Source: Limnochorda sp. LNt (GTDB lineage Bacteria; Bacillota; Limnochordia; Limnochordales; Geochordaceae). From it: DNA of 64,000 nucleotides. Of this stretch, positions 5,975 through 26,573 are shown piece by piece. Under the pieces are notes generated by a model. The model was not told the DNA's origin. It made no database searches and worked only from the letters and a program-made list of their open reading frames with translations. The position numbers and the translations under genes were made by a program. The stretch lies in the NCBI RefSeq assembly GCF_035593265.1, contig NZ_CP141614.1, positions 620,001 to 684,000 on the forward strand, given 5' to 3'. Every line of letters begins with the position of its first letter. Positions within the stretch are counted from its first letter, which is position 1.

Positions 5975-7101
5975 GATTGAGCGCCGCCAGATCGCAGGCT
6001 CGCGTAAGCCTCACGGACAAGGCGTATAACTACCGGCACATCCGGTGGGCGCAACGGGCGAGGATCGAAGGCGATGATCCCTAGGTTAACGCGATGGGTG
6101 CGCACCATAACCGGAGGAGTGGTGCGCGCCAGCCAGTCGACGAGCGCCGCGGCGGTAAAGCCGAGGCGAACCTCGTCCAACTGCATCACCAGCCGGACGA
6201 TCGGGCGCCCGGCTTCGTCGCGTTCAATGTAGGCGCGGGTGTACGGCAGCTCTTTGAGGCCGGCAAGGAGCTCTTCGGCCACGCGAGTCAGTGGCGCCAG
6301 CAGTTCCGTGGGGGATCGGGCCACGTAGGTCGAAAGGGCGGTCAACAGCCCCATGATGGTCTCTTTCCCGACCTTCATCGCGCGAGCGATCCCCTGCTCC
6401 TGGGCGCGGCATGCGGCGACAAGGCTTTCCTTTCCGCATATGATCCCGGAGGTCGGCCCACCGAACGCTTTTCCGCCGCTATACGTGACCAGGTCCGCTC
6501 CCGCTTCGATGTACGACCTCAAGTCGGTCTCCGCAGCGGCGTCGACTAGGACGGGGATACCCCGGCCATGAGCGAGCCGGATCACGTCGGCGAGCGGCAG
6601 CATTCCCTTCTGGACGCAGTGGTGGGACTGCACGAAGAGGACGGCGGCAACATGGTCGTCCAACGACGCTGCGAACAGTTCCGCGGGAGTGGCATTTGCC
6701 CACCCGACCGGGCGGGGTTCTCCGCCGCCGAGGCGTATCATCTGCGCTATGGGGGCACCGAAGTTAATCAGGTGCCCACTCTGCACCACGATCTCGCGGG
6801 GCTGCCAATCCGCGTTGGGCAGCCGCTCTATGCGACGAGGGTCTGTTCCGGCCACACAAGCGGCTGTCATGATAGCAATCCCGGCTCCTGCGCCGCAGGT
6901 GACCCAGGCGGATTCAGCGCCGGCCCACTTAGCTATCATCGCACCAGCGCGCTGTTTGAGGACGTCCATGTCGACGTACGCGGCCCCCGCATGGGCCATG
7001 GCCGAGGCTACGGCCGGGCTCAGGGAGGCGCCCCCCAGGCGGGTCATCATCCCGCTCGCGTTGATAACTGGGGTAACCCCGATGTCCTCATACGTGATCA
7101 A
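5971..7101 (-). CDS. SelA-like PLP enzyme, probable D-glucosaminate-6-phosphate ammonia-lyase type
   Basis: About 376 residues of the SelA-related, PLP-dependent family that includes DgaE. DgaE turns D-glucosaminate 6-phosphate into 2-keto-3-deoxy-6-phosphogluconate plus ammonia. Visible marks are the N-terminal INASGMMTRLGGASLSP, the glycine-rich TCGAGAGIAI, LVDAAAE, and the likely PLP lysine in TYSGGKAFGGPTSG. I chose TTG 7101, 6-7 nt after GGAGGG; TTG 7125 is the alternative. The start overlaps the kinase stop by about 14 nt, so the two are translationally coupled. The locus also holds a KDPG-type aldolase, the normal partner of this family. True selenocysteine synthase is unlikely, because no selenocysteine genes are nearby. 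Confidence 0.75.
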   Translation of the reverse strand: MITYEDIGVTPVINASGMMTRLGGASLSPAVASAMAHAGAAYVDMDVLKQRAGAMIAKWAGAESAWVTCGAGAGIAIMTAACVAGTDPRRIERLPNADWQPREIVVQSGHLINFGAPIAQMIRLGGGEPRPVGWANATPAELFAASLDDHVAAVLFVQSHHCVQKGMLPLADVIRLAHGRGIPVLVDAAAETDLRSYIEAGADLVTYSGGKAFGGPTSGIICGKESLVAACRAQEQGIARAMKVGKETIMGLLTALSTYVARSPTELLAPLTRVAEELLAGLKELPYTRAYIERDEAGRPIVRLVMQLDEVRLGFTAAALVDWLARTTPPVMVRTHRVNLGIIAFDPRPLRPPDVPVVIRLVREAYASLRSGGAQS

Positions 7102-7686
7102 GTCGCACCCTCCAGTTCGCGGCAAGAGCCCTTCGAAACTCCGTATGGACCGCCTTGTAGGCTTCCGTCCAGGCTGGCTCCGGTTCGACGACCCGTTCAG
7201 GCGTTGCCGCCATGTGTCGAACGGCGGTTTGAAGCGACGGGTGGATCCCGCTGGCGACAGCCCCCAGCATTGCTGCTCCCAGAGCCGACACTTCTCGGGT
7301 CATCAGTTCGAGCGGTCTGTCGAGAACGCTTGCGAGGATCCGGGGCCATTGACGACTGCGTCCACCGCCTCCCGTCAGCGACAGACGGGTGATGATAACG
7401 CCTCGCCTTTGCAGCACGTCCACTATCTCGCGAAGGCCCAGAGAGACTCCCTCCAGCACAGCGCGTGCCAGGTCTCGGACATCATGCTCCGGCCGCAGCC
7501 CCAGAAAGGCCCCCGTCGCATTGGGCCGGAACGCTGGCACCTCAGCCCCGTGGACGTACGGCAGGAACAAGAGCCCCCGGCACCCCGGAATCGAGCCAGC
7601 CGCCCACTCGTCCAGCGTTTTGTACACCTCGGACAGGTGCGCAGCAGCAAGGGGTTGCCTGGCCTCCAACAACCCCACCAGCCTAG
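7088..7686 (-). pseudogene. FGGY sugar kinase, C-terminal part (split by IS)
   Basis: This is the second half of an FGGY carbohydrate kinase. It has GCRGLLFLPYVHGAEVPAF, ATGAFLGL, VLEGVSLGLREIVDVL and the ATP-site loop LSLTGGGGRSRQW, followed by the helical end typical of xylulose/gluconate kinases. The preceding codons are at 9639-10483, beyond an inserted IS. Joining the halves across one CTAG copy gives ...VLWLAR-LVGLLEAR... in one frame, so the gene is broken only by the insertion. Its 3' end overlaps the SelA-like gene, which may now be starved of operon transcription. Confidence 0.85.
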
Positions 7687-9642
7687 GTGACTGCTCGGTT
7701 TCCTGTTGAATCGGGCCTTTGGTAGGGGGTTTGAAAGGTCAGGCATGCGGCCAGCGGGTTCGAGCTCGACCCAATCGCGGCCTTCGACGGGAGGGCGGAG
7801 CGCGTCGTGCTGCCTTTCCAACCCCCGGTTTCCCTTCTCTTTTCCTTGTCTTCCAGCTTCTTACTCATGCGGGGCCCACCACCCCCACGGGTGGCCCGGC
7901 GGCCATCACCTCCTTGATGTTGTGGTTGATGGCGGCCAGCAGGAGCTGGAAGCGCACCTTGATGCGACCCCAGTAGCGCGCCTTGCGGGCCCCGTGGGTC
8001 TTGAGCTGCCGCACGATGCGCTCGATGCGGGCCCGCAGCCGGTAGCGCTCCCGAAAGGCCGGGGTGCGCTGGTACGCCCGAGCCTGCCGCAGCTCGACCT
8101 CGTAGGGGTGGATCGTGACCTGACGGGCCGCCGCCGGCGTGCAGCGGGCCTTGAGGGGACAGGCCCCGCAGGCCTCGGCCGCAAAGCTCACCACGAACCC
8201 CTTGTGGTGCTGCAGTCGGCCCGGGTCGAAGCGGACCGTCTGCCCTGCGGGGCAGGTGAGCGTGCCGGCGTCGGCGTCCAGGGCGAAGGCCTCCTTCGAG
8301 AAGTACCCCTCCCGGTTCGTCGCCGGGGGCGCCTTGGCCACGATGAGGGTCCCCTTCTCGGCCTGGCGCCGGGCGCGCTCGACGTCGAAGTACGCCTGAT
8401 CGCCCAGCACCTCCGCGGGGGCGGTGGCCGTGCCGCTCCTGGTCGTCCAGCATCGCCTCCAGCCTCGCGTCGTCCGGTGCGTTGGCGGGCGTCACCGCGA
8501 CGGCGGTGACCAGCCGGTGGCCCTCGCCGCCCGTCATCAGATGGGCTTTGTAGCCGTCTGCCCGGTTCGAGGCCGTCTTGTGGCCATGGCGCATCTCGGG
8601 GTCGACCACCGAGATGACCCGGTCCTTGGCCACCCCCCTGCTTGAGGCGGACCGTCCCGTCCGGGTCCCGCTCGATGTCCTGGGTGGCCACCCGCTCCAG
8701 CAGGTCCACCATGGCCTTCAAGTCCTCGGGCACCTTCGCAAGCGCCCGCGCCGCCGCCACCAGGGCCAACGCGTCGTCGACCAGCGCCTGGAGCAGCTGT
8801 CGGCGGGCCTCGGCGTCGTCCCAGTCGATCCGGGGCTTGCCCGGCTGGTGGTAATCGGTGCGCTTCAGTACCGCCGAAAGCGGACCGTCCAGCTCGTGCA
8901 TCCGGGCCACCGCCAGGACCCGCACGATACCCTTGCGGATGAGGGTGTAGGTGTCCTGCACGGCGGCCCCGCCGTGGATGAGAAAGGAATCGACGATCTG
9001 GGAGCGCTCCGGCGAAAACAGCCCCGCCTGCTTGGCCGAGGCCAGGGTCCTCTCCAGCATGGCCGCCGCGATGCCATGCTGCAAGAAGCGCCGGCGGTGG
9101 TCGCACAGCGTCACCGCATCGATGCCCTCAAAGTCCCGCCCCGCCAAAATCGCCAGCTTCACCCGGTCATCGAAGCGGGATTCCTGCTCCATCTCCCGGT
9201 CCGAGTAGCCCTTCTCCATCTGGATCAACAGCGCCAGAAACGTGTGGACCGGGCTCACCGAAGGCCTTCCGGTGCGGGCGTCAAACAGCGGAGCAAACAT
9301 CGATTCGTCCAGGTTCTGCACCGCCCAGTCGTGGAGCCGCCACCAGTAGGAGTCCTTGGGGATGCGCTGTCGCCAGGTGACGTCGTCGAAGGTGGTCTGC
9401 CGGTTGCGCCGGCCCAGCACGCCGCTCCACTCCCTGCCCGGAGGTGGTTTCCAGCCGCATCGTACCACGAAAACGGGCGTGAACGCAAGAGCGGTGCAGC
9501 AATACAAAGCTACAGAAAGCTCATAGAGGTGTATCAATGGTTACTGTCCAAGAAAGCCCTCCGGCGTTCATCATCGACTTTCTATTCTTCAAACCCCATC
9601 AGCTCATACCCCGTGGGGTACGGTTTCCGAGCGGTCACCTAG
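7683..9642. mobile_element. IS1182-type element inserted in a sugar kinase gene
   Basis: Target duplication CTAG stands at 7683-7686 and 9639-9642. The element between them (7687-9638, 1952 bp) begins GTGACTGCTCGG and ends CCGAGCGGTCAC, a 12-bp inverted repeat with one mismatch. The kinase reading frame is continuous across a single CTAG. The element carries one frameshifted transposase. Confidence 0.9.
7865..9420 (-). pseudogene. IS1182-family transposase with two frameshifts
   Basis: The start is GTG 9420 (VLGRRNRQTTFDDV), with GGGAGTGGAG upstream. The frame carries DUF772-like and first-Asp segments (QIVDSFLIHGGAAV). At 8635-8640 a run of six Gs, where five are expected, shifts it out; the correct reading continues VAKDRVISVVDPEMRHGHK. 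A second shift at about 8430-8445 moves to the frame with VLGDQAYFD (second Asp) and ERIVRQLKTHGARKARYWG (Glu). All three catalytic residues exist, but in three frames. The element cannot make its own transposase unless the indels are sequence errors. Confidence 0.85.
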
Positions 9643-10483
9643 CCAGCCACAGCACGGACACCCCTCCTGTGGGCAGGTCGCCGCCCGACGCCCAGAGCCC
9701 GTCGATAAAGGGATAGGTGAAGGTGTGACAAAACCGCGTGGGGTAGAGGGGCCGCGTCGTGTTGACCCGGATCACTCCGACGGTGCCCAGGGTGACGCAG
9801 CCCTGACCCGCCTCCACCATCCCTGCGCCCAGATTGGCGCACACGCCGTCGTGCCCGCCCACCGCCACGGGAATCCCGCGTGGGAGGCCCAGCTCGTCTG
9901 CGATGTCGCTCTTGAGGGGCCCGAGGGGCTCCTCGCCGGGAGAGATCCGGGGCAGCCACGAACGCTGAACACGGTAGCGCTCCGTCGACCTAGGCCACTC
10001 CCGTGTGTTGGCGCTGAAAGGATCGGTGGCGAGCCTCCCCGTCAGAACGAAGTTGATATAATCCTTGACTCCACACAGGCTGCGCAGCCTGTCGGCGGCG
10101 GCAGGGTCCACCCGGCGAAACGCTTCCGCCGCCCGGCCCCACGCGGCGAGTTTGCTGTATCGGCGTGTCTTGACGCGAGGGACGCGACCCACCTCTGAGG
10201 CGAGCGATGCCCAGGGGACGGGCAGAGGCTCTCCGTTGCCGCCGAGGAACGCAAGCCCGGACCCCCGCCCGCAAAGGCCCATGGCAACCACGCTATGTCC
10301 GGATGCGCGAGCCATAACGGACCGGATGGTGTCACGTACGGCTGCCCACCACTGCTGCGGATCATGGACCGGGCCGCGAGCGGCATAAGGCAATACGACC
10401 TCTGCAAGGGTCTCGCCGTCTCGGCTTACGAGTATGGCTTTACATGTGGTCGTTCCGATGTCGCAGCCCAGGATGGCTTCCAT
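9639..10483 (-). pseudogene. FGGY sugar kinase, N-terminal part (split by IS)
   Basis: ATG 10483 follows GGGAG. The product starts MEAILGCDIGTTTCKAILVS, the FGGY phosphate-1 loop, then shows MGLCGRGSGLAFL, GVKDYINFVLTGRLATD and GGHDGVCANLGAGM with the catalytic-base Asp of FGGY kinases. It reads ...VSVLWLAR and hits a stop just inside the inserted IS. As it stands it makes about 280 residues without the C-terminal ATP-binding lobe, so it should be inactive. It lies 50 bp downstream of the IclR gene. By context the substrate would be a sugar acid or amino-sugar acid. Confidence 0.88.
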
Positions 10484-19735: not shown

Positions 19736-19809
19736 ATCTCGCCATCTACCTGGCCACGACTGCGGGATTTCCGTGGCCAAAAGTGCGGTTTTTCAAGTGG
19801 CCATTGACA

Positions 19810-20699
19810 GCCCGCCGGCCCGAAAGCTCCGTCTCCTCCACGTACACCACCCGCAGCGGCGGCATCCCCTCCCAACTGGTAAACCCTTCGTCCTCCCACG
19901 CCTTGACCTCCACCGGGGGCTTGCCCCGCCGGCCCACCTCCACCCACTGCCGGTCCGGCCGACGGCGCGCAAACAGCCCCATGGCGTCCTGCACGATCAG
20001 CATCCGCTCATCTTCCAGGCGCACCACGAAATGGTAGCCGTAACGCCGCACCGCCCTCAGAAACGGCGCCTTCGCAAAGCCCGCATCGAAGAGCAGCACG
20101 TCGACGAAGTGCTTGAAGTGGGTGTACAGCCACGCCAACAGCCGCAGCGCGGCGGTCGTCTCCCCTTCCCCGGGGTGCACCGGCTCGTAGCCCCAAAACA
20201 GCCGGGGCGCCGGGCCGACCCCGTGGCAGAACACCGCCGCATGGTCGTACGTGATGCTCCCATCCCGGTGAGGCTGCGCCCGGCAATGCTCGCATTTATG
20301 GAGCGCCGACGTGAAAAAGTGGGTGCCGTCCACGGCCGCCACCCGCCAGCCCTAGCCCTCGAAAAAGGGCACCGCCTTCATGGCCTTGATCGCCTTCATG
20401 ACCTGGATGAACAAGCGCTCAAGCGCCTCCAGGTCGACCCGGTCCATCCCGTCCCGCAGGGCATCCGCCGACGGCGGGCGCTGACCTCGGGGCAACAGTT
20501 GGCGGAAATGGCGCCGAGCCAGGCGCTCCAGCTGCTCCCAACTGGGCAGTTGCAGCAAAAAGCCCATCCACGCCGTCAGCCACAGCGTGCCGGGCAGGAT
20601 CTCCGGCCGCTTGCGGCCATCGCGAGCTTGCCGCCAGGCGCCGGGTGGCAGGAGCTTTTGGTGGGCATATCGAACCAGATCTCGCAGCCACCGCCGCAT
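19810..20699 (-). pseudogene. IS4-superfamily transposase, N-terminal part with in-frame amber
   Basis: From ATG 20699 (MRRWLRDLVRYAHQKLLPPG) the frame reads through an N-terminal helical domain to a TAG codon at 20352-20354 (VPFFEG-stop-GWRVAAVDGTHFF). It then continues in the same frame through the first catalytic Asp (AVDGTHFF) and second Asp (VLLFDAGFAKAPFL) up to the IS21 insertion. So this gene is hit twice: by a nonsense codon and by IS21. No slippery site or other sign of programmed readthrough is obvious. Confidence 0.8.
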
Positions 20700-20710
20700 C
20701 GGTGGCGCTC

Positions 20711-20755
20711 ACCTCCCGAGCCCTTCTGGTTTGTGTTGGCTCGGGAGGTCTTTTT
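20711..20755 (+). terminator. Intrinsic terminator at the right end of the IS4-type element
   Basis: ACCTCCCGAGCC (20711-20722) pairs perfectly with GGCTCGGGAGGT (20738-20749), a 12-bp stem with a 15-nt loop, followed by CTTTTT. It would stop plus-strand transcription leaving the element. It lies upstream of, and antisense to, the minus-strand transposase start at 20699. Confidence 0.75.
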
Positions 20756-20876
20756 CTGCCGAACCGGCCCCTTTCCTCCAGGAATCCCCAGAAAACTCGG
20801 AGTCAAGTCCCCATTTGCGCCGCTTGCCCCGCCGCTTCGCTATCGGCACCGCGGCTCATAGGAAGCGAGATTTCTG

Positions 20877-20922
20877 CCTGTCACGCCGGAGATCGGGGGT
20901 TCGAATCCCCTCGGCCCCGCCA
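20877..20922 (+). tRNA. tRNA-Asp(GTC) 3' half, truncated by IS
   Basis: CCTGTCAC (anticodon loop with GTC), variable AGATC, T arm GGGGG-TTCGAAT-CCCCT, acceptor CGGCCCC and GCCA match the 3' half of bacterial tRNA-Asp. The expected 5' half (GGGGCCG...GAGCG) is replaced by the end of the IS4-type element, which finishes in GATTTCTG at about 20876. The chance-like 5' sequence at 20845 pairs with the acceptor at only 5 of 7 positions. It should not give a functional tRNA. Confidence 0.65.
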
Positions 20923-20924
20923 GC

Positions 20925-20999
20925 TCCGGGCTCGGCTAAGCGGCAGGCCGCCAGGCTTTGGACCTGGAGGTGCTCGTTCGACTCGGGCGCCCGGAACCA
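20925..20999 (+). tRNA. tRNA-Gln(TTG), intact
   Basis: The 75-nt cloverleaf is complete. Acceptor TCCGGGC/GCCCGGA pairs 7 of 7; the D stem is GGC/GCC; the anticodon stem is CCAGG/CCTGG around CTTTGGA (anticodon TTG at 20958-20960); the variable loop is AGGT; the T stem is GCTCG/CGGGC around TTCGACT; the discriminator is A and CCA is encoded. It follows the truncated tRNA-Asp by 2 nt, so the pair was once one tRNA transcript whose promoter side has been replaced by an IS. Confidence 0.88.
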
Positions 21000-21025
21000 G
21001 TTCACGGTGAGGAGGCACGGCAGCT

Positions 21026-21466
21026 TTGGGGATCCACCGCTGGGACAGGTACGTAGACCATGAGCCGGACGCGTTGCGGGTGCTCTTTACCCTGAGCGAT
21101 CTTTGCAATAAGTGTCACGGACCCCTGACCGAAGACGAATGCCCTTGCCCGATCATGGCCGCTCGCGTTCAGGCGCTGGCGTATCTTAAAGAGGCCGCTT
21201 CCTTGCCTCCTCGGGCCCGTTCGATGCCTCAGGATGAGCTGCGTCGGGTGATCGAGCTATTTGAAGCGTATGACCGTCGGTGGTTTGTGCCCACCGAAGA
21301 GCACGAGCGCCACGGGACACTGGGGCTTCCGCTCTTTAAGGTCAACCCGGCCTGGCACGAGGCCAAGGCGCTGGCCGATCGGCTCATGGAAGCGTGGGAG
21401 GCCGAGCGGCGCCGGCTGTGGGAGAAGTTCGGCGTCCCGGAAGAGGAGGCGGAGCGTGAAGCCTGA
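21026..21466 (+). CDS. Unknown protein with Cys-rich N-terminus
   Basis: 146 residues, not recognised. The start is TTG 21026, about 11 nt after GGAGG; no better in-frame start precedes the Cys motif. Near residue 30 it has CNKCHGPLTEDECPC, a plausible zinc-binding knuckle. The rest is charged and helical (DELRRVIELFEAYDRRW, LADRLMEAWEAERRRLWEKFG). It overlaps the next gene by 11 nt and heads a run of three small genes before rtcB, so it may be made with them. No function can be assigned. Confidence 0.6.
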   Translation: MGIHRWDRYVDHEPDALRVLFTLSDLCNKCHGPLTEDECPCPIMAARVQALAYLKEAASLPPRARSMPQDELRRVIELFEAYDRRWFVPTEEHERHGTLGLPLFKVNPAWHEAKALADRLMEAWEAERRRLWEKFGVPEEEAEREA

Positions 21467-21998
21467 CTACTCGGATATCACGTCCCGCTTGGGTGCCCCT
21501 CTTTGGTACGACGAGCACGGGGTTCCTCGTTACGAGCCGTTCCGTCCTGACCTGTGTGACGTCTACACCGACTACGTCGCGCTGTTGCAGGTAGAGTGCC
21601 ACGGGTGCGGCCAGGCCTTCAGGGTGGCCCAGTCGGTGTGCCTGCTCGATGAGCGTGTCGCTCGCAAGGATCCAAGCTGGGTACCCGAGCTTCCCGGGGA
21701 TGGGCGCATCGGCCATTTCCACTATGGAGACCCGCCTTCTCACCTGAACGCGGTCGGCGAGCATTGCGTGGGAGAGTCGATGAACACCATCCGCCGGCGG
21801 GTCCTTGAGTTTTGGCGACGGGACCGCGGACACCCCTGGAAATGGGTCCGGGACCACCGGCATGAGATCGAGCTATCAGGCGACCCGTTCGGATTCGAGG
21901 AGGCTACGCAGCCTCGAGCCGGAAGGGCTGCGCGGCTGAGCGCAGGGGAGAGTGGGACGCATGACCGCCAGGGAACGAGCCCTACAGAAGATACGTGA
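21456..21998 (+). CDS. Unknown protein with Cys/His motif
   Basis: About 180 residues from GTG 21456 (VKPDYSDITSRLG), preceded by GAGGAGGCGGAG. It has VECHGCGQAFRVAQSVC and later HFHYGDPPSHLNAVGEHC, a Cys/His set that could bind zinc, then DRGHPWKWVRDHRHEIEL. The start overlaps the previous gene, and the C-terminal 38 nt overlap the next one. I do not recognise a family. The shared zinc-like pattern with its neighbour suggests related roles in one cassette with RtcB. Confidence 0.6.
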   Translation: MKPDYSDITSRLGAPLWYDEHGVPRYEPFRPDLCDVYTDYVALLQVECHGCGQAFRVAQSVCLLDERVARKDPSWVPELPGDGRIGHFHYGDPPSHLNAVGEHCVGESMNTIRRRVLEFWRRDRGHPWKWVRDHRHEIELSGDPFGFEEATQPRAGRAARLSAGESGTHDRQGTSPTEDT

Positions 21999-22425
21999 GG
22001 CCATCCAGGAGCTTCGTGGGCTCGGAACCATCGATGACCTGCCGGACTGGGTCTGGGAAGAAGTCTGGCATCTTAAAGGCGTGCGGCGTAACCAAGAGGG
22101 GTACTACGACCTGGGGTGCGAGTTGTGTCAAGGGGATCATGGGATCGCCATCCGAGCCCGGCTATTCGGCCCTGGCTGGCCGGTCGTGTTCGAGGTCTAT
22201 CGGTACCGCCGTTCGTGGCCTCTGAAAGACCGCGTCCGCGAGGCCTGGCGTGCCCTGCGTGGTCTACCTTATGAGGATGAGGTGCTCCAGAGTGCCGATT
22301 CGCTGGTGAGGCTGCGGGACTTTCTGAACCGGGTCTTTGCGTACGCTGCACCGGGGCCTGATGGCACACAAGGTCGACCACCCCGCGGCGCAAGCAACGG
22401 TTCCCCGGGGTCGGAGAAGGAGTGA
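21961..22425 (+). CDS. Unknown small protein upstream of rtcB
   Basis: 154 residues from ATG 21961 (MTARERALQKIREAIQELRG), with GGGGAGA about 10 nt upstream. The N-terminus is helical; the middle has DWVWEEVWHLKGV and GCELCQGDHGIAIRARLFG, with one CxxC; the C-terminus is Pro/Gly-rich. It overlaps the preceding gene by 38 nt and ends 15 nt before rtcB. Operon membership with rtcB is therefore likely. No known domain is recognised. Confidence 0.6.
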   Translation: MTARERALQKIREAIQELRGLGTIDDLPDWVWEEVWHLKGVRRNQEGYYDLGCELCQGDHGIAIRARLFGPGWPVVFEVYRYRRSWPLKDRVREAWRALRGLPYEDEVLQSADSLVRLRDFLNRVFAYAAPGPDGTQGRPPRGASNGSPGSEKE

Positions 22426-22440
22426 GCGGGGTATCTCTCC

Positions 22441-23676
22441 ATGGATAGGCCATTTCGCATTTTCGGCCAGCACGACGAAGAGACCCTGCGGCAGATGGAG
22501 CGGGTGGCTACCACGGGGCCGGTCGTCGACGCCGTGCTGATGGCCGATGGACACAAGGGTTACTCCATGCCGGTAGGCGGCGTGGTGGCGTACGATGAGG
22601 CGGTGTCGCCTGTGGGGGTTGGAGTCGACATAGGGTGCGGCTGCCTTGCCGTCCGCACCGAGCTGACCTACTCAGACCTGGTACAGCTTGCCGGGGAGGA
22701 CAAGACCTCCATCAAGCCCCTGGTCAACCGGATCTACAAGAGTATCGCCTTCGGGATGGGCCGTACCAACCCGGATCCGGTCGATTCCCCCCTCTTCGAC
22801 GATCCCCGTTGGGAGGCCATCCCCGCCCCGGTGCGTGGCTCCTTGCGCAACCTGGCACGTCAGCAGCTTGGGACGGTAGGCGGTGGCAATCACTTCGTCG
22901 ACCTTCTCGTCGAGGAAAGTCCAGAGGGCAAGGTGTGGGTGGCCTGCCATTTCGGCTCCCGGGGCTTTGGCTTCAAGGTCGCCCACGGCTTTCTGGGCCT
23001 GCATGCTGGGCTCGGCTGGGAGGACGCTGTTCGTGAAGACATGGATGCCCCGCCGGTCGTCTTCTCGTTGCGTTCCAGCATCGGCCAGGACTACTGGCAG
23101 GCCATGAGCCTGGCCATCGACTACGCCTATGCCGGCCGAGAGTACGTCGTCGGTCAGGTGCTGAGGCTCCTGGGCAACCCCAAGGTGCTCCTCACCGTGC
23201 ACAACAACCACAACGACGCCCGCAAGGAAGTCCACAACGGCCAGGAAGTCGTCGTGGTGCGCAAGGGCGCCACTCCGCTATTTCCGGGCCAATTGGGCTT
23301 CGTCGGCGGCTCGATGGGCGACATCAGCGTCATCGTCCGGGGCCTCGATACCGAAGAGAATGAGCTCACCATCCGCCCGACGGTTCACGGCGCAGGTCGC
23401 GTCATGAGCCGCACGAAGGCGGCCGGCAAGCGCAAGAAGATCGACGGCCGGTGGATGCGGGTGGGTGGTGAGGTGGACTGGGAGGCCGTGCGACGCTCGC
23501 TGTGGGAGCGGGGCATCGTCGTGAAAGGCGGGGGCGCCGATGAGGCGCCGGCGGTCTACCGGCCGCTTTCCCAGGTGTTGGGCGCCTACACCGACTCCTT
23601 CGAGGTGCTGTGCACGCTACGTCCGGTAGCCGTCATGATGGCCCCGGAGAACGAGTTTGACCCCTATAAGGACTAA
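22441..23676 (+). CDS. rtcB: RNA ligase RtcB
   Basis: 411 residues, within the range of shorter bacterial RtcB proteins. It joins RNA 2',3'-cyclic phosphate (3'-phosphate) ends to 5'-OH ends using GTP and Mn2+. Signature motifs are all present: MADGHKGYSMPVGGV, VGVDIGCGC (metal Asp/Cys), GTVGGGNHF, CHFGSRGFG, VHNNHNDA, VRKGATP, and HGAGRVMSR with the His that carries GMP. It follows three small unknown genes and precedes a PIN-like remnant and an integrase, an accessory setting. Bacterial rtcB often repairs tRNA or rRNA cut by ribonucleases; that role here is inference. Confidence 0.95.
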   Translation: MDRPFRIFGQHDEETLRQMERVATTGPVVDAVLMADGHKGYSMPVGGVVAYDEAVSPVGVGVDIGCGCLAVRTELTYSDLVQLAGEDKTSIKPLVNRIYKSIAFGMGRTNPDPVDSPLFDDPRWEAIPAPVRGSLRNLARQQLGTVGGGNHFVDLLVEESPEGKVWVACHFGSRGFGFKVAHGFLGLHAGLGWEDAVREDMDAPPVVFSLRSSIGQDYWQAMSLAIDYAYAGREYVVGQVLRLLGNPKVLLTVHNNHNDARKEVHNGQEVVVVRKGATPLFPGQLGFVGGSMGDISVIVRGLDTEENELTIRPTVHGAGRVMSRTKAAGKRKKIDGRWMRVGGEVDWEAVRRSLWERGIVVKGGGADEAPAVYRPLSQVLGAYTDSFEVLCTLRPVAVMMAPENEFDPYKD

Positions 23677-24017
23677 GGCAGGTGTGGCGGTCGGCAACTC
23701 CGGTGCCCAGCGTGATGCCTCGACGCTGCGGATGCCGATGCTTGGCGGGGGGCGCTCCTCCGGGCCATCGAGAACGATGAAGACCTCCTGAAGGAAACGT
23801 CGTGGAAGGTTATGAGCCGTGTGGGACGTGCCGGACGGGGCAGAAAGCCGGGCCAAGCTCCCTCCCTTCACCAGGGCTGAAGCCCGGGGCATCCTGGCAG
23901 TGAGCATGGGAGATGGTGCCATGGCCTACCCGGAAAGCCTTGGGCTGCGGAAGATCGGGGGCCCCGGCCAACGCGGGACAACGTGAGGGGGCGGTCTCGG
24001 CAAGAGGTAGGTCCCAC
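23677..24017. other. Non-coding gap with no recognised element
   Basis: 341 bases between rtcB and the PIN-like frame. No tRNA, convincing hairpin, promoter pair or coding similarity was seen. The missing N-terminus of the PIN domain could not be found here in any frame. Confidence 0.5.
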
Positions 24018-24380
24018 ATGCGGGAGGCTCCAATGTATGCCGAAAGACAAATCGACGTCCTGACCGTCCACGAGGTGAGCTACACCCTGCTGCGGGTGCT
24101 GGCGACCCGGTTCCCCTCGCCCCGGGAGGTAGTGGAGTACCTGGCGAGCATCTTGCTCCTGGACGCCGTGCGTTGTCCCGACAAGGAGGTTCTACTGGCA
24201 GCCCTGCACCGCTGGGCCGAGCGGGGCCCCAAGTTCGGCGGCTTCGCCGATGCGTGGCTGGCTGTGCGAGCCCAGCGGAGCGGGCTGCCCGTGTGCAGCG
24301 TCAACGGTAGTGACTTTCCAGACGTTGTCAATACGCACCCGCTGGCAGAACCTGGCCAGGGCGAGGCAGCGACACCGTGA
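24018..24380 (+). CDS. PIN-like (VapC-type) protein, N-terminally truncated
   Basis: About 120 residues from ATG 24018; an in-frame start at 23913 adds unlikely sequence. VLTVHEVSYTLLRVLATRFP, LLLDAVRCPDKEVLLAALHRWAERG, FADAWLAVRAQRSGLPVCSVNGSDFPDV follow the middle and end of PIN ribonucleases, with the acidic residues of the ADA...D region kept. The family's first strand and Asp (LLDANVLLRFL type) are absent, so catalysis is doubtful. No antitoxin frame is visible upstream. It is probably the remnant of a toxin gene; its place next to rtcB, an RNA-repair ligase, may be meaningful or chance. Confidence 0.5.
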   Translation: MREAPMYAERQIDVLTVHEVSYTLLRVLATRFPSPREVVEYLASILLLDAVRCPDKEVLLAALHRWAERGPKFGGFADAWLAVRAQRSGLPVCSVNGSDFPDVVNTHPLAEPGQGEAATP

Positions 24381-24596
24381 TCACCGCTCCCGGGTCGGTC
24401 AGTCAGCCGTCGCTTATCTGTCGGTCCGTTGCGCCATAGGAGCAGGCTCCTGAGACGCTAGGTCTCCAGGTGAGCGACCGTAGGCTGGAGTGGTCCATGC
24501 GCGGGCCGCCCGCAGTCGACCCGTGACAACCGCCTGATATACACGGGATGGCCAGGAAACCACGGCCGTTCCCGGCCTTTCGTCGCAGGAGGGCCT

Positions 24597-26126
24597 ATGT
24601 CCGTGTCGTATTTGGTTTCCCAGCCCTACGGGGAAACGCAGCTGTCCCGGCCTCGGAAAGGAGGGCCGGCACAGTTGGCCGGGACGACTCGTCGGACCCG
24701 AAGGGGCACTGGTAGCCGCAATCGTCGGTTTGGTTCGATCCGCCAACTCCCGAATGGGCGGTGGGAAGCTCGCTGGGACGCGGGGGTGGATGCGAAGGGG
24801 CGGCGCCTGCAGCGCTTGAAGAGCTTCGCCAGCCGCGAGGAGGCGGAAGCCTTTCTGGGCCAGCAAGCGGTGCTGTCGGCTCGTCGCCTCGCGCGGGAAG
24901 GCGAGGTCCTCACGTTCGGCGAGTTCATGAGGACCTGGCTGCGGGACATCTACCCGGAAGAGTGCGAGCTCAACACCCTGCGATCCAGTCGCTACCATGC
25001 GCGCCATCTGATCCGGGCGCTGGGTCGCTACCGTCTGGCCGATCTCACCCCGGCCATCGTCGAGCGGTATCTGGAAGAGGCGAAGGCGAAGGGGTTGTCG
25101 GTGGGCACCCGCCGTCGCCACCTGACCTTGCTGCGGAAGGCCCTGGACTACGCCGTCGAGAAGGGTGCGCTGCACCGCAACCCCGCCCGTCAGGTACGGA
25201 TGCGCTACCGCAACGGCTCGGTGCGCGAGGTGCTCACCGAGTCGGAGCTCAAGGCGCTGTGGCAGGCGGCCGAGGGCTCCTACTACCGGGACCTGTTCCG
25301 GCTGTACCTGCTGACCGGGGCCCGAGAAGGCGAGCTTCTGGGCCTCTGCTGGGACGACGTGGTCTGGGAGACCGGCGAGACCATCATCCGCCACAATCTC
25401 GTCTACGCGAAAGCGGATGAGATCGACGAATGGCTCGCTCGCCATCCGGGAGAGGGGATCCGGTTGGGCCGAACCTTCGTGCTGAAGGGGCCCAAGACGG
25501 AGACCTCGCTTCGCCGCATTCCCTTGGGCCAGGCGTACATGGCGATCCTGCGAGCGCATCGGGAGCGCATGGAGCGCCTGCGTCGCCCGGACTGGCCAAA
25601 GCTACCGGTAGACCTGGTTTTCCGCAGCCGGACCGGGATGCCGCTTTCGCCGCGCCATCTGCGGCTGGCCATCAAGAAGCTCGCCCTGAGAGCCGGCATG
25701 GACCCGGACGTGGTGGCCAAGAAGGTGCGGGTCCACGCCCTGCGGCATGGGCAGGCCACGCACCTGCTCTTGCGCAATGTCCCCCTGAAGGTTGTGGCGG
25801 AGCGGTTTGGGCATGCCAGCACACACGTCACGGCCGATATGTACCAGCACGTCTTGCCGCCCATGCAGGACGAGGCGGTGCAGGCGGTCCAGAGCCTGTT
25901 CGGGGCACCGCCGGAGGTCACCCACGATCCGGAGCTTGAGCCGCCGGAGACGGTGGCCCGAATCCGGGAGCTGTATCGCCAGGGCAAAAGCTACTGGGCG
26001 ATCGCCAAGCAGCTCAACGAGGAGGGCTACCGCACCCGTCGGGGTGGGAAGTTCTACCACCAGACGGTGCGGCAGATCCTGGAGGATCCTCGTTACCGGG
26101 ATTTGGCAGTCGACGGGAAGGCATGA
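24597..26126 (+). CDS. Tyrosine recombinase/integrase with extra C-terminal domain
   Basis: 509 residues. After a basic leader there is an AP2-like arm-binding segment (GSIRQLPNGRWEARWDAG), a SAM-like core-binding domain (LTFGEFMRTWLRDI) and the catalytic domain with Arg in TGAREGELLGL, HALRHGQATHLL, GHASTHVTADMYQHV (catalytic His/Gly and Tyr). About 60 further residues follow (ARIRELYRQGKSYWAIAKQLNEEG, then a TRRGGKFYHQTVRQILEDPRY stretch). These resemble the recombinase linker of large serine recombinases, an unusual appendix. The N-terminal start is as in the frame, with CAGGAGGGCCT upstream. It probably moved the 21-26 kb cassette. Confidence 0.9.
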   Translation: MSVSYLVSQPYGETQLSRPRKGGPAQLAGTTRRTRRGTGSRNRRFGSIRQLPNGRWEARWDAGVDAKGRRLQRLKSFASREEAEAFLGQQAVLSARRLAREGEVLTFGEFMRTWLRDIYPEECELNTLRSSRYHARHLIRALGRYRLADLTPAIVERYLEEAKAKGLSVGTRRRHLTLLRKALDYAVEKGALHRNPARQVRMRYRNGSVREVLTESELKALWQAAEGSYYRDLFRLYLLTGAREGELLGLCWDDVVWETGETIIRHNLVYAKADEIDEWLARHPGEGIRLGRTFVLKGPKTETSLRRIPLGQAYMAILRAHRERMERLRRPDWPKLPVDLVFRSRTGMPLSPRHLRLAIKKLALRAGMDPDVVAKKVRVHALRHGQATHLLLRNVPLKVVAERFGHASTHVTADMYQHVLPPMQDEAVQAVQSLFGAPPEVTHDPELEPPETVARIRELYRQGKSYWAIAKQLNEEGYRTRRGGKFYHQTVRQILEDPRYRDLAVDGKA

Positions 26127-26241
26127 TACCTATACCCCGTAGGGTAGGAAAGCGAAGTCCGATCCCACGAAAAATCTCACGAACTACACGTACAAGGGGA
26201 TCACTACAGACCATAAAATGCCAAATGGCAATGCGTTCCAG

Positions 26242-26390
26242 TCCGGCGAGGCTTGTCACGACGGCGTTTACCGGGATCGGGATGGGGAACGGGGAAGCAT
26301 CCCCCTTCCCATTCCGAACACGGAAGTGAAAACCTCCAGCGCCTAGGGTACTGTGGGGGCCACCCCACGGGAGAGCGGGTCGCCGCCGGG
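26242..26390 (+). rRNA. 5S rRNA with internal expansion
   Basis: The diagnostic core CCCATTCCGAACACGGAAGT (26309-26328) is followed by CTCCAGCGCC, GGTACTGTGGGG, CCCCACGGGAGAGCGGGTCGCC in canonical order. Helix I is TCCGGCG (26242-26248) with CGCCGGG (26384-26390). The predicted length is about 149 nt against about 117 normally. The extra ~30 nt lie between GACGGCG and the loop-B core, in TTTACCGGGATCGGGATGGG, and can form a hairpin of GGGAACGGGG with CCCCCTTCCC. No 16S or 23S gene is in the window, so this copy is not in a visible rRNA operon. Confidence 0.8.
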
Positions 26391-26406
26391 ACACCCTTGC
26401 GACGAG

Positions 26407-26466
26407 GTCACGGCCTCGATCCCCGATGGATCCCGCCAAGCCGGGGTCCGGGGTCGAGGCCGTGAC
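26407..26466. terminator. Strong stem-loop 16 nt after 5S rRNA
   Basis: GTCACGGCCTCGATCCCC (26407-26424) is complementary to GGGGTCGAGGCCGTGAC (26450-26466) apart from one bulge, around a 25-nt loop. There is no U tract (GTTCTGG follows). It may end or process the 5S transcript. Confidence 0.45.
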
Positions 26467-26573
26467 GTTCTGGTGGGCGCCGCCACTTGCCGGCCTCCGT
26501 CACGCTGTAGCGTTGCGTCCTCCTGGGGAAGCAACCTTGCGTTCGCCGTGAACGGGGGCGGCTTCGTTCATCG

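What the first reader, a model, noticed from the sequence alone, without database searches (positions are those of the whole stretch)
21026..26126. Accessory cassette with RtcB, unknown Cys proteins and a broken PIN protein
Three overlapping unknown genes, two with zinc-knuckle-like motifs and the third with a single CxxC, lead into rtcB, then a truncated PIN ribonuclease and an integrase. RtcB repairs RNAs cut by ribonucleases, and PIN toxins cut RNA. A mobile RNA-damage/repair or defence module is a reasonable guess.
Basis: inference. Interest (0 to 1): 0.65.

Follow-up and report, generated by a model that had tools for sequence, protein, structure and literature searches.

The report
Phage-type tRNA–RtcB repair cluster remnant
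A short gene cluster in a bacterial chromosome (two surplus tRNA genes, three small unknown proteins and an RNA-repair ligase) looks like a stranded piece of a bacteriophage genome that once repaired or replaced tRNAs cut by the host, while the broken nuclease and the integrase next to it seem to be separate debris.

Summary
Upstream, 27 bp before gene 1, lie a surplus tRNA-Gln(UUG) and a truncated tRNA-Asp. Downstream of the integrase lies a fragment of a 5S rRNA gene.

Gene 2 belongs to PHROG 27600; its relatives are mostly in phages or prophages. One viral contig (L063) carries the gene-2 homologue, four tRNAs and RtcB within 3.9 kb. Viral RtcBs of this subfamily lie within 2 kb of tRNA genes in 17/69 contigs, against 2/46 for a thyX control. 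Genes 1–3 have much lower GC3 than host genes nearby. Best reading: a relic of a phage tRNA/RtcB region, a known arrangement already proposed to counter host tRNA cleavage.

Caveats: the RtcB itself branches nearer to chromosomal RtcBs of the same order than to phage ones; genes 1 and 3 have no relatives found; function is inferred. The PIN toxin–repair idea is not supported: that remnant recurs without RtcB, and PIN cleavage chemistry does not suit RtcB. The integrase/5S unit is a separate lead.

The parts
20876..20922 (+). 3' half of a tRNA-Asp(GTC) gene; its 5' half is replaced by sequence next to a degenerate IS transposase
   Evidence: ARAGORN (20845-20922), below the Rfam gathering score; 47 bp at 94% to the host tRNA-Asp 3' half, with a C-G to G-C compensatory change in the T stem
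20925..20999 (+). surplus tRNA-Gln(TTG), 3' CCA encoded
   Evidence: 49 bits; the host has its own tRNA-Gln(TTG) and tRNA-Gln(CTG) elsewhere; 68% identity to host tRNA-Gln(TTG)
21026..21466 (+). g1, 146 aa, CxxC-x9-CxC motif, no relative found
21456..21998 (+). g2, 180 aa, PHROG 27600 family (phage protein of unknown function; conserved PxW.D...VPR, CxxC, YGDPP, C.xG)
21961..22425 (+). g3, 154 aa, one CxxC, no relative found
22441..23676 (+). rtcB, 411 aa; aligned metal ligands and GMP-accepting histidine conserved (D63, C66, H151, H170, H257, H316)
24051..24326 (+). PIN-domain remnant inside ORF 23913-24380 (N-terminal part missing)
   Evidence: second copy of 24159-24535 at G000:C1:1320020-1320396
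24597..26126 (+). tyrosine integrase, 509 aa, with extra C-terminal PF07508 segment (residues 451-500)
   Evidence: 90% nt identical relic in G005
26302..26467 (+). 3' fragment of a 5S rRNA gene plus its terminator, 175 bp after the integrase; candidate attachment site

Best explanation
The stretch from about 20876 to 23676 is a relic of a phage (or phage-like element) early region: a short tRNA array (Asp, Gln) followed by three overlapping small genes and rtcB, probably one transcription unit. In the phage, RtcB would reseal tRNAs (or other RNAs) cut by host anticodon nucleases that leave 2',3'-cyclic-phosphate/5'-OH ends, and the phage tRNAs would replace depleted ones. g1-g3 are small phage accessory proteins; g2 is an uncharacterised phage family, perhaps Zn-binding. 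In this chromosome it is a stranded passenger among IS elements and 5S/integrase debris, possibly still making a second RtcB. Shown: gene content, phage affinity of g2, surplus tRNAs, intact RtcB active site, tRNA-rtcB association in viral contigs. Inferred: phage descent of the whole block, the counter-nuclease role, co-transcription, present-day activity.
For: g2 is in PHROG 27600 (5e-15). Its homologues are in Thermus phages beside thymidylate synthase and ribonucleotide reductase genes, in 10 IMG/VR contigs and in a Bacillota prophage early region with integrase and thyX, but in only 2 of 399 Bacillota genomes, the window's own included. Viral contig L063 has g2 (6001-6426), tRNA-Ser/Leu/Leu/Lys (7217-7949) and rtcB (8637-9857, 51% id) among other phage families. 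tRNA within 2 kb of rtcB: 17/69 distinct viral contigs against 2/46 for thyX, Fisher p 0.003; within-contig permutation p about 0.01. The host already has tRNA-Gln(TTG) and tRNA-Asp. GC3 of g1-g3 is 0.68-0.74 against about 0.92 for host genes to the right. RtcB active-site residues are invariant. Published precedent: PMC3203893, PMC7881722, PMC7824862.
Against: In the tree the window RtcB falls on the side of six chromosomal RtcBs of the same order and class (52-56% id), not inside the phage clade. g1 and g3 have no phage relatives. g2 and rtcB occur together in only one other contig; the other g2 loci lack rtcB nearby and none of the other 79 viral rtcB contigs searched has g2. No phage structural or replication genes were found beside the block. 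g2 also occurs as a chromosomal gene after RNase J in Rhodobacteraceae. The thyX control is not matched for phage genome size.
Confidence: 0.6

Rival explanations
1. A cellular RtcB of the host's own order, moved or laterally passed between relatives, that happens to sit behind unrelated phage scraps (tRNAs, g1-g3). It acts as a general RNA-repair enzyme beside the canonical RtcB.
For: The closest RtcBs are chromosomal genes of other families of the same order (53-56% id), in two genomes next to a TrmL-like methyltransferase gene, and the tree puts the window gene nearer to them than to viral ones. GC3 of rtcB (0.82) is higher than that of g1-g3. A canonical rtcB remains at G000:C1:46678-47964.
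Against: The same-genus and same-family genomes examined lack this RtcB. It is packed 15 bp behind g3 on one strand. None of the relatives' copies has tRNAs or g1-g3 beside it. The window branch is long (0.68).
Confidence: 0.25
2. A mobile RNA-damage/repair or defence module in which the PIN ribonuclease cuts RNA and RtcB heals it.
For: Same strand, adjacent genes, integrase next door.
Against: The PIN lacks its N-terminus, recurs without rtcB and has no antitoxin or PADLOC match. PIN cleavage ends are the wrong kind for RtcB (own knowledge of the families). 236 bp without a recognised gene separates rtcB from the PIN ORF.
Confidence: 0.05
3. Cargo of an integrative element that uses the 5S rRNA gene as its attachment site. 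The tyrosine integrase 24597-26126 moves an element whose right end is at the 5S fragment, with rtcB as cargo.
For: An integrase 175 bp from a 5S 3' fragment; the same integrase-end/5S unit at 90% nt in G005; further 5S fragments downstream of the second rrn operon, one with the same left flank beside a PIN fragment; a 70-bp exact repeat with the rrnA 5S 40 kb upstream.
Against: The 70-bp repeat lies within conserved 5S sequence. The rrnA downstream region resembles rrnB's past the terminator, so it does not look like a hybrid attL. The 40 kb between holds sugar transporters and IS elements. The relics elsewhere lack rtcB and g1-g3, so cargo linkage is not shown.
Confidence: 0.1

Closest known systems
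Phage-encoded RtcB with tRNA genes (mycobacteriophage subcluster K1, PMC3203893; Proteus phage Privateer, PMC7881722; jumbo phages, PMC7824862)
   Same: RtcB-like ligase in phages that also carry tRNA genes, close together in Privateer; proposed protection against host tRNA cleavage
   Different: Here it is in a bacterial chromosome, without other recognisable phage genes, with only one intact tRNA; this RtcB is nearer to chromosomal RtcBs of the host order
PHROG 27600 (Thermus phage P23-45/P74-26 gp15-type protein)
   Same: g2 aligns along about 140 residues with all family-conserved motifs
   Different: Carries about 40 extra C-terminal residues overlapping g3; function unknown throughout; fold search found no match
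RtcR-controlled rtcBA operon of proteobacteria (PMC7790460)
   Same: RtcB RNA ligase
   Different: No rtcA, no rtcR, no Rsr or Y RNA recognised next to it
VapBC/PIN toxin-antitoxin modules
   Same: PIN domain C-terminal two thirds
   Different: N-terminus and antitoxin missing; below the Pfam cut-off

Membership tests
RtcB RNA ligase (PF01139) | profile match over catalytic domain with metal ligands and GMP-accepting histidine | tested here: met
   216 bits; D63, C66, H151, H170, H257, H316 invariant; identity of the ligands from own knowledge of PH1602
RtcB RNA ligase (PF01139) | ligation of 2',3'-cyclic-P/3'-P to 5'-OH RNA ends | not testable with these tools
   needs a biochemical assay
phage tRNA-RtcB counter-defence region | RtcB close to surplus tRNA genes | tested here: met
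   tRNA-Gln 1.4 kb upstream on the same strand, redundant with host tRNAs
phage tRNA-RtcB counter-defence region | neighbouring genes of phage families | tested here: met
   g2 = PHROG 27600; L063 has g2, tRNAs and rtcB; g1 and g3 unplaced
phage tRNA-RtcB counter-defence region | RtcB descends from a phage RtcB lineage | tested here: inconclusive
   tree places it beside chromosomal RtcBs of the order, outside the sampled phage clade
phage tRNA-RtcB counter-defence region | protects translation against host tRNA cleavage | not testable with these tools
   needs a phage/nuclease assay
PHROG 27600 | profile match and conserved motifs | tested here: met
   5.4e-15 over 1-140; all invariant columns kept
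VapC-type PIN toxin | complete PIN fold with all acidic active-site residues | tested here: not met
   profile positions 1-32 absent, score 20.5 below cut-off 23.6
VapC-type PIN toxin | adjacent antitoxin gene | tested here: not met
   none recognised in the ORF lists or library hits
tyrosine integrase element with 5S attachment site | integrase next to one att half that copies the target gene | tested here: met
   5S 3' fragment 175 bp downstream; repeated in G005
tyrosine integrase element with 5S attachment site | matching left att half and empty site in a relative | tested here: inconclusive
   70-bp repeat at rrnA 5S 40 kb away, but the flank pattern does not fit a hybrid attL; same-genus contig carrying the right flank shows no 5S or element
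known defence system (PADLOC) | match to any PADLOC model | tested here: not met
   0 matches

The most novel reading that the evidence does not exclude
g1-g3 are RtcB partner proteins (Zn-binding substrate adaptors) forming, with the tRNAs, a previously undescribed tRNA-repair cassette that passes between phages and integrative elements which insert into 5S rRNA genes; the placing of the g2 family next to RNA enzymes (RtcB here and in L063, RNase J in Rhodobacteraceae) would then reflect an RNA-repair role.
Probability: 0.1. Interest if true: 0.65.

Novelty: new member of a known kind. Interest (0 to 1): 0.35.

Why it matters
It adds a chromosomal relic and a quantitative association (RtcB near tRNA genes in viral contigs of this subfamily) to the proposal that phages carry RtcB to undo tRNA cleavage by host defences, and it names a phage protein family (PHROG 27600) worth testing for a link to RNA repair. 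The side observation of an integrase travelling with a 5S rRNA fragment would be the less expected result if confirmed.

Tried and rejected
PIN-RtcB toxin/repair pair: rejected (broken PIN, duplicate without rtcB, chemistry). Conserved g1-g3-rtcB operon in relatives: not found in 61-101 related genomes for each gene. Weak g3 hit in G004: part of a 369-aa frame, judged chance. g2 fold search in PDB and BFVD: no match with E below 0.001, so no mechanism from structure. g1 folded from a single sequence: models disagree (pLDDT 75 to 44), not used. Single-sequence scans of viral contigs with rtcB, g1 and g3 found nothing. A 40-kb element between rrnA and the window's 5S fragment: considered, not supported by the flank pattern or contents. 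Literature search for 5S rRNA as an integrase attachment site: no relevant paper in the held library. First family scans with a wrong g2 frame failed and were repeated. A first RtcB alignment included one sequence on the wrong strand and was remade.
Full report
WHAT IS THERE. The window is G000:C1:620001-684000 of a single-contig 3.02-Mb genome. g1, g2 and g3 overlap head to tail, and rtcB starts 15 bp after g3. Pfam (above cut-off), NCBIfam and PADLOC find nothing for g1-g3. PHROGs finds g2 (phrog_27600, 5.4e-15) and RtcB (phrog_1075). RtcB is a full-length 411-aa member of PF01139. The residues corresponding to the metal ligands and the guanylated histidine of PH1602 are invariant in an alignment with ten relatives (assignment of those residues from own knowledge). 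The PIN match starts at profile position 33 and falls below the Pfam cut-off, so the gene is truncated. The integrase is full length.

(a) Two tRNA genes abut the block on the same strand: tRNA-Gln(TTG) 20925-20999, 27 bp before g1, and the 3' half of a tRNA-Asp ending 2 bp before that. The tRNAs of the genome were listed (48 matches) and read by ARAGORN. The host has its own tRNA-Gln(TTG), tRNA-Gln(CTG) and tRNA-Asp(GTC), so these are surplus; the Gln copy is only about 68% identical to the host's. (b) Downstream of the integrase lies a 5S rRNA fragment.

WHERE THE SMALL GENES COME FROM. g2 homologues: Thermus phages P23-45, P74-26 and G20c, beside thymidylate synthase and ribonucleotide reductase genes; ten IMG/VR contigs; a prophage in G092 with integrase, repressor-like and thyX genes; alphaproteobacterial plasmids of two genera; and three Rhodobacteraceae-type genomes, in two of which the gene overlaps the end of an RNase J gene. 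Only 2 of 399 Bacillota genomes carry it, the window's own included. g1 and g3 matched nothing convincing in phages, viral contigs or 60 relatives. GC3 of g1-g3 is 0.68-0.74 against about 0.92 for the host genes to the right, consistent with foreign origin.

LINK BETWEEN G2, tRNAs AND RtcB. Viral contig L063 holds, within 3.9 kb on one strand, the g2 homologue, tRNA-Ser, two tRNA-Leu, tRNA-Lys and rtcB (51% identity), among phage-family genes. Of the 80 best viral contigs with this RtcB subfamily, 23 have a tRNA gene within the fetched flanks, 17 within 2 kb and 14 within 500 bp. In a control set fetched the same way with thyX the numbers are 6, 3 and 3. After removing similar contigs: 17/69 against 2/46 within 2 kb, Fisher p 0.003. 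Within the same contigs, random placement of the gene reaches 14 hits in 20 of 2000 trials. The control is not matched for phage genome size, so part of the signal may be that large phages have both. Besides L063 itself (refetched as L132), none of the 80 contigs has a recognisable g2, so g2 is an occasional neighbour, not a fixed partner.

WHERE THE RtcB COMES FROM. The nearest RtcBs are chromosomal genes of other families of the same order (and one of the same class), 52-56% identical, in ordinary gene contexts without tRNAs or g1-g3; the same-genus and same-family genomes examined lack it. A tree of 83 RtcBs puts the window gene outside the sampled phage clade, on the side of those chromosomal genes, on a long branch. 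Phage descent of rtcB itself is therefore not shown; the phage affinity rests on g2, the tRNAs, L063 and composition.

PIN AND INTEGRASE. Window 24159-24535 recurs at 93% at G000:C1:1320020-1320396, beside another 5S fragment and without rtcB. The integrase end plus the 5S fragment recur at 90% nt in G005, a genome of another family, without rtcB next to it. These are parts that move or decay independently of the rtcB block. The 5S pattern suggests an integrase that uses the 5S gene as its attachment site, but the expected hybrid left end was not found: rrnA keeps rrnB-like sequence beyond its terminator. The library searched holds no paper describing this.

MECHANISM. Jumbo-phage RtcB ligases are described as sealing RNAs with 3'-phosphate or 2',3'-cyclic-phosphate ends made by metal-independent RNases, supplementing phage tRNAs (PMC7824862). 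Subcluster K1 mycobacteriophages were the only cluster-K phages with both tRNAs and RtcB, and a role against host tRNA cleavage was proposed (PMC3203893). Phage Privateer has RtcB about 1 kb from a tRNA cluster (PMC7881722). Phage tRNAs and ligases as answers to anticodon nucleases are discussed in PMC10264068. The window block fits this arrangement and is most simply a relic of one. PIN nucleases, being metal-dependent, leave 5'-P/3'-OH ends (own knowledge), which RtcB does not join; PMC7790460 does cite VapC as an inducer of the E. coli rtc operon, so the point is not absolute.

VERDICT. Observation confirmed; interpretation partly supported. New member of a known kind, moderate interest. 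Whether the block is expressed or functional today cannot be told from sequence.

Noticed in passing
window 24597-26467; L124:8126-8724 (G005): Tyrosine integrase followed 175 bp later by a 3' fragment of a 5S rRNA gene; the same unit, decayed, at 90% nt in a genome of another family. Candidate 5S-rRNA-targeting integrase.
   Followed up: partly
G000:C1:1258767-1325712 (L050-L053): Further 5S 3' fragments with terminator lie 35 kb and 61 kb downstream of the second rrn operon; one has the same left flank as the window's fragment and a PIN fragment beside it.
   Followed up: partly
window 24597-26126: The tyrosine integrase carries a C-terminal PF07508 (serine-recombinase 'Recombinase' domain) segment, residues 451-500.
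   Followed up: no
L069:1881-4045, L071:6334-8476: g2-family gene overlaps the end of an RNase J gene in two Rhodobacteraceae-type genomes, suggesting a link to RNA metabolism.
   Followed up: no
window 19746-20870: Degenerate IS transposase (minus strand, internal stop near 20345) beside the truncated tRNA-Asp; an IS insertion may have removed its 5' half.
   Followed up: no
L162, L189, L203, L173: Viral contigs in which rtcB lies inside or beside tRNA arrays of 18-32 genes.
   Followed up: partly
window 7685-9642 and G000:C1:1284413-1286366: A 1.96-kb stretch is 99.7% identical to a second genome copy; it reads like a recent transposon duplication.
   Followed up: no
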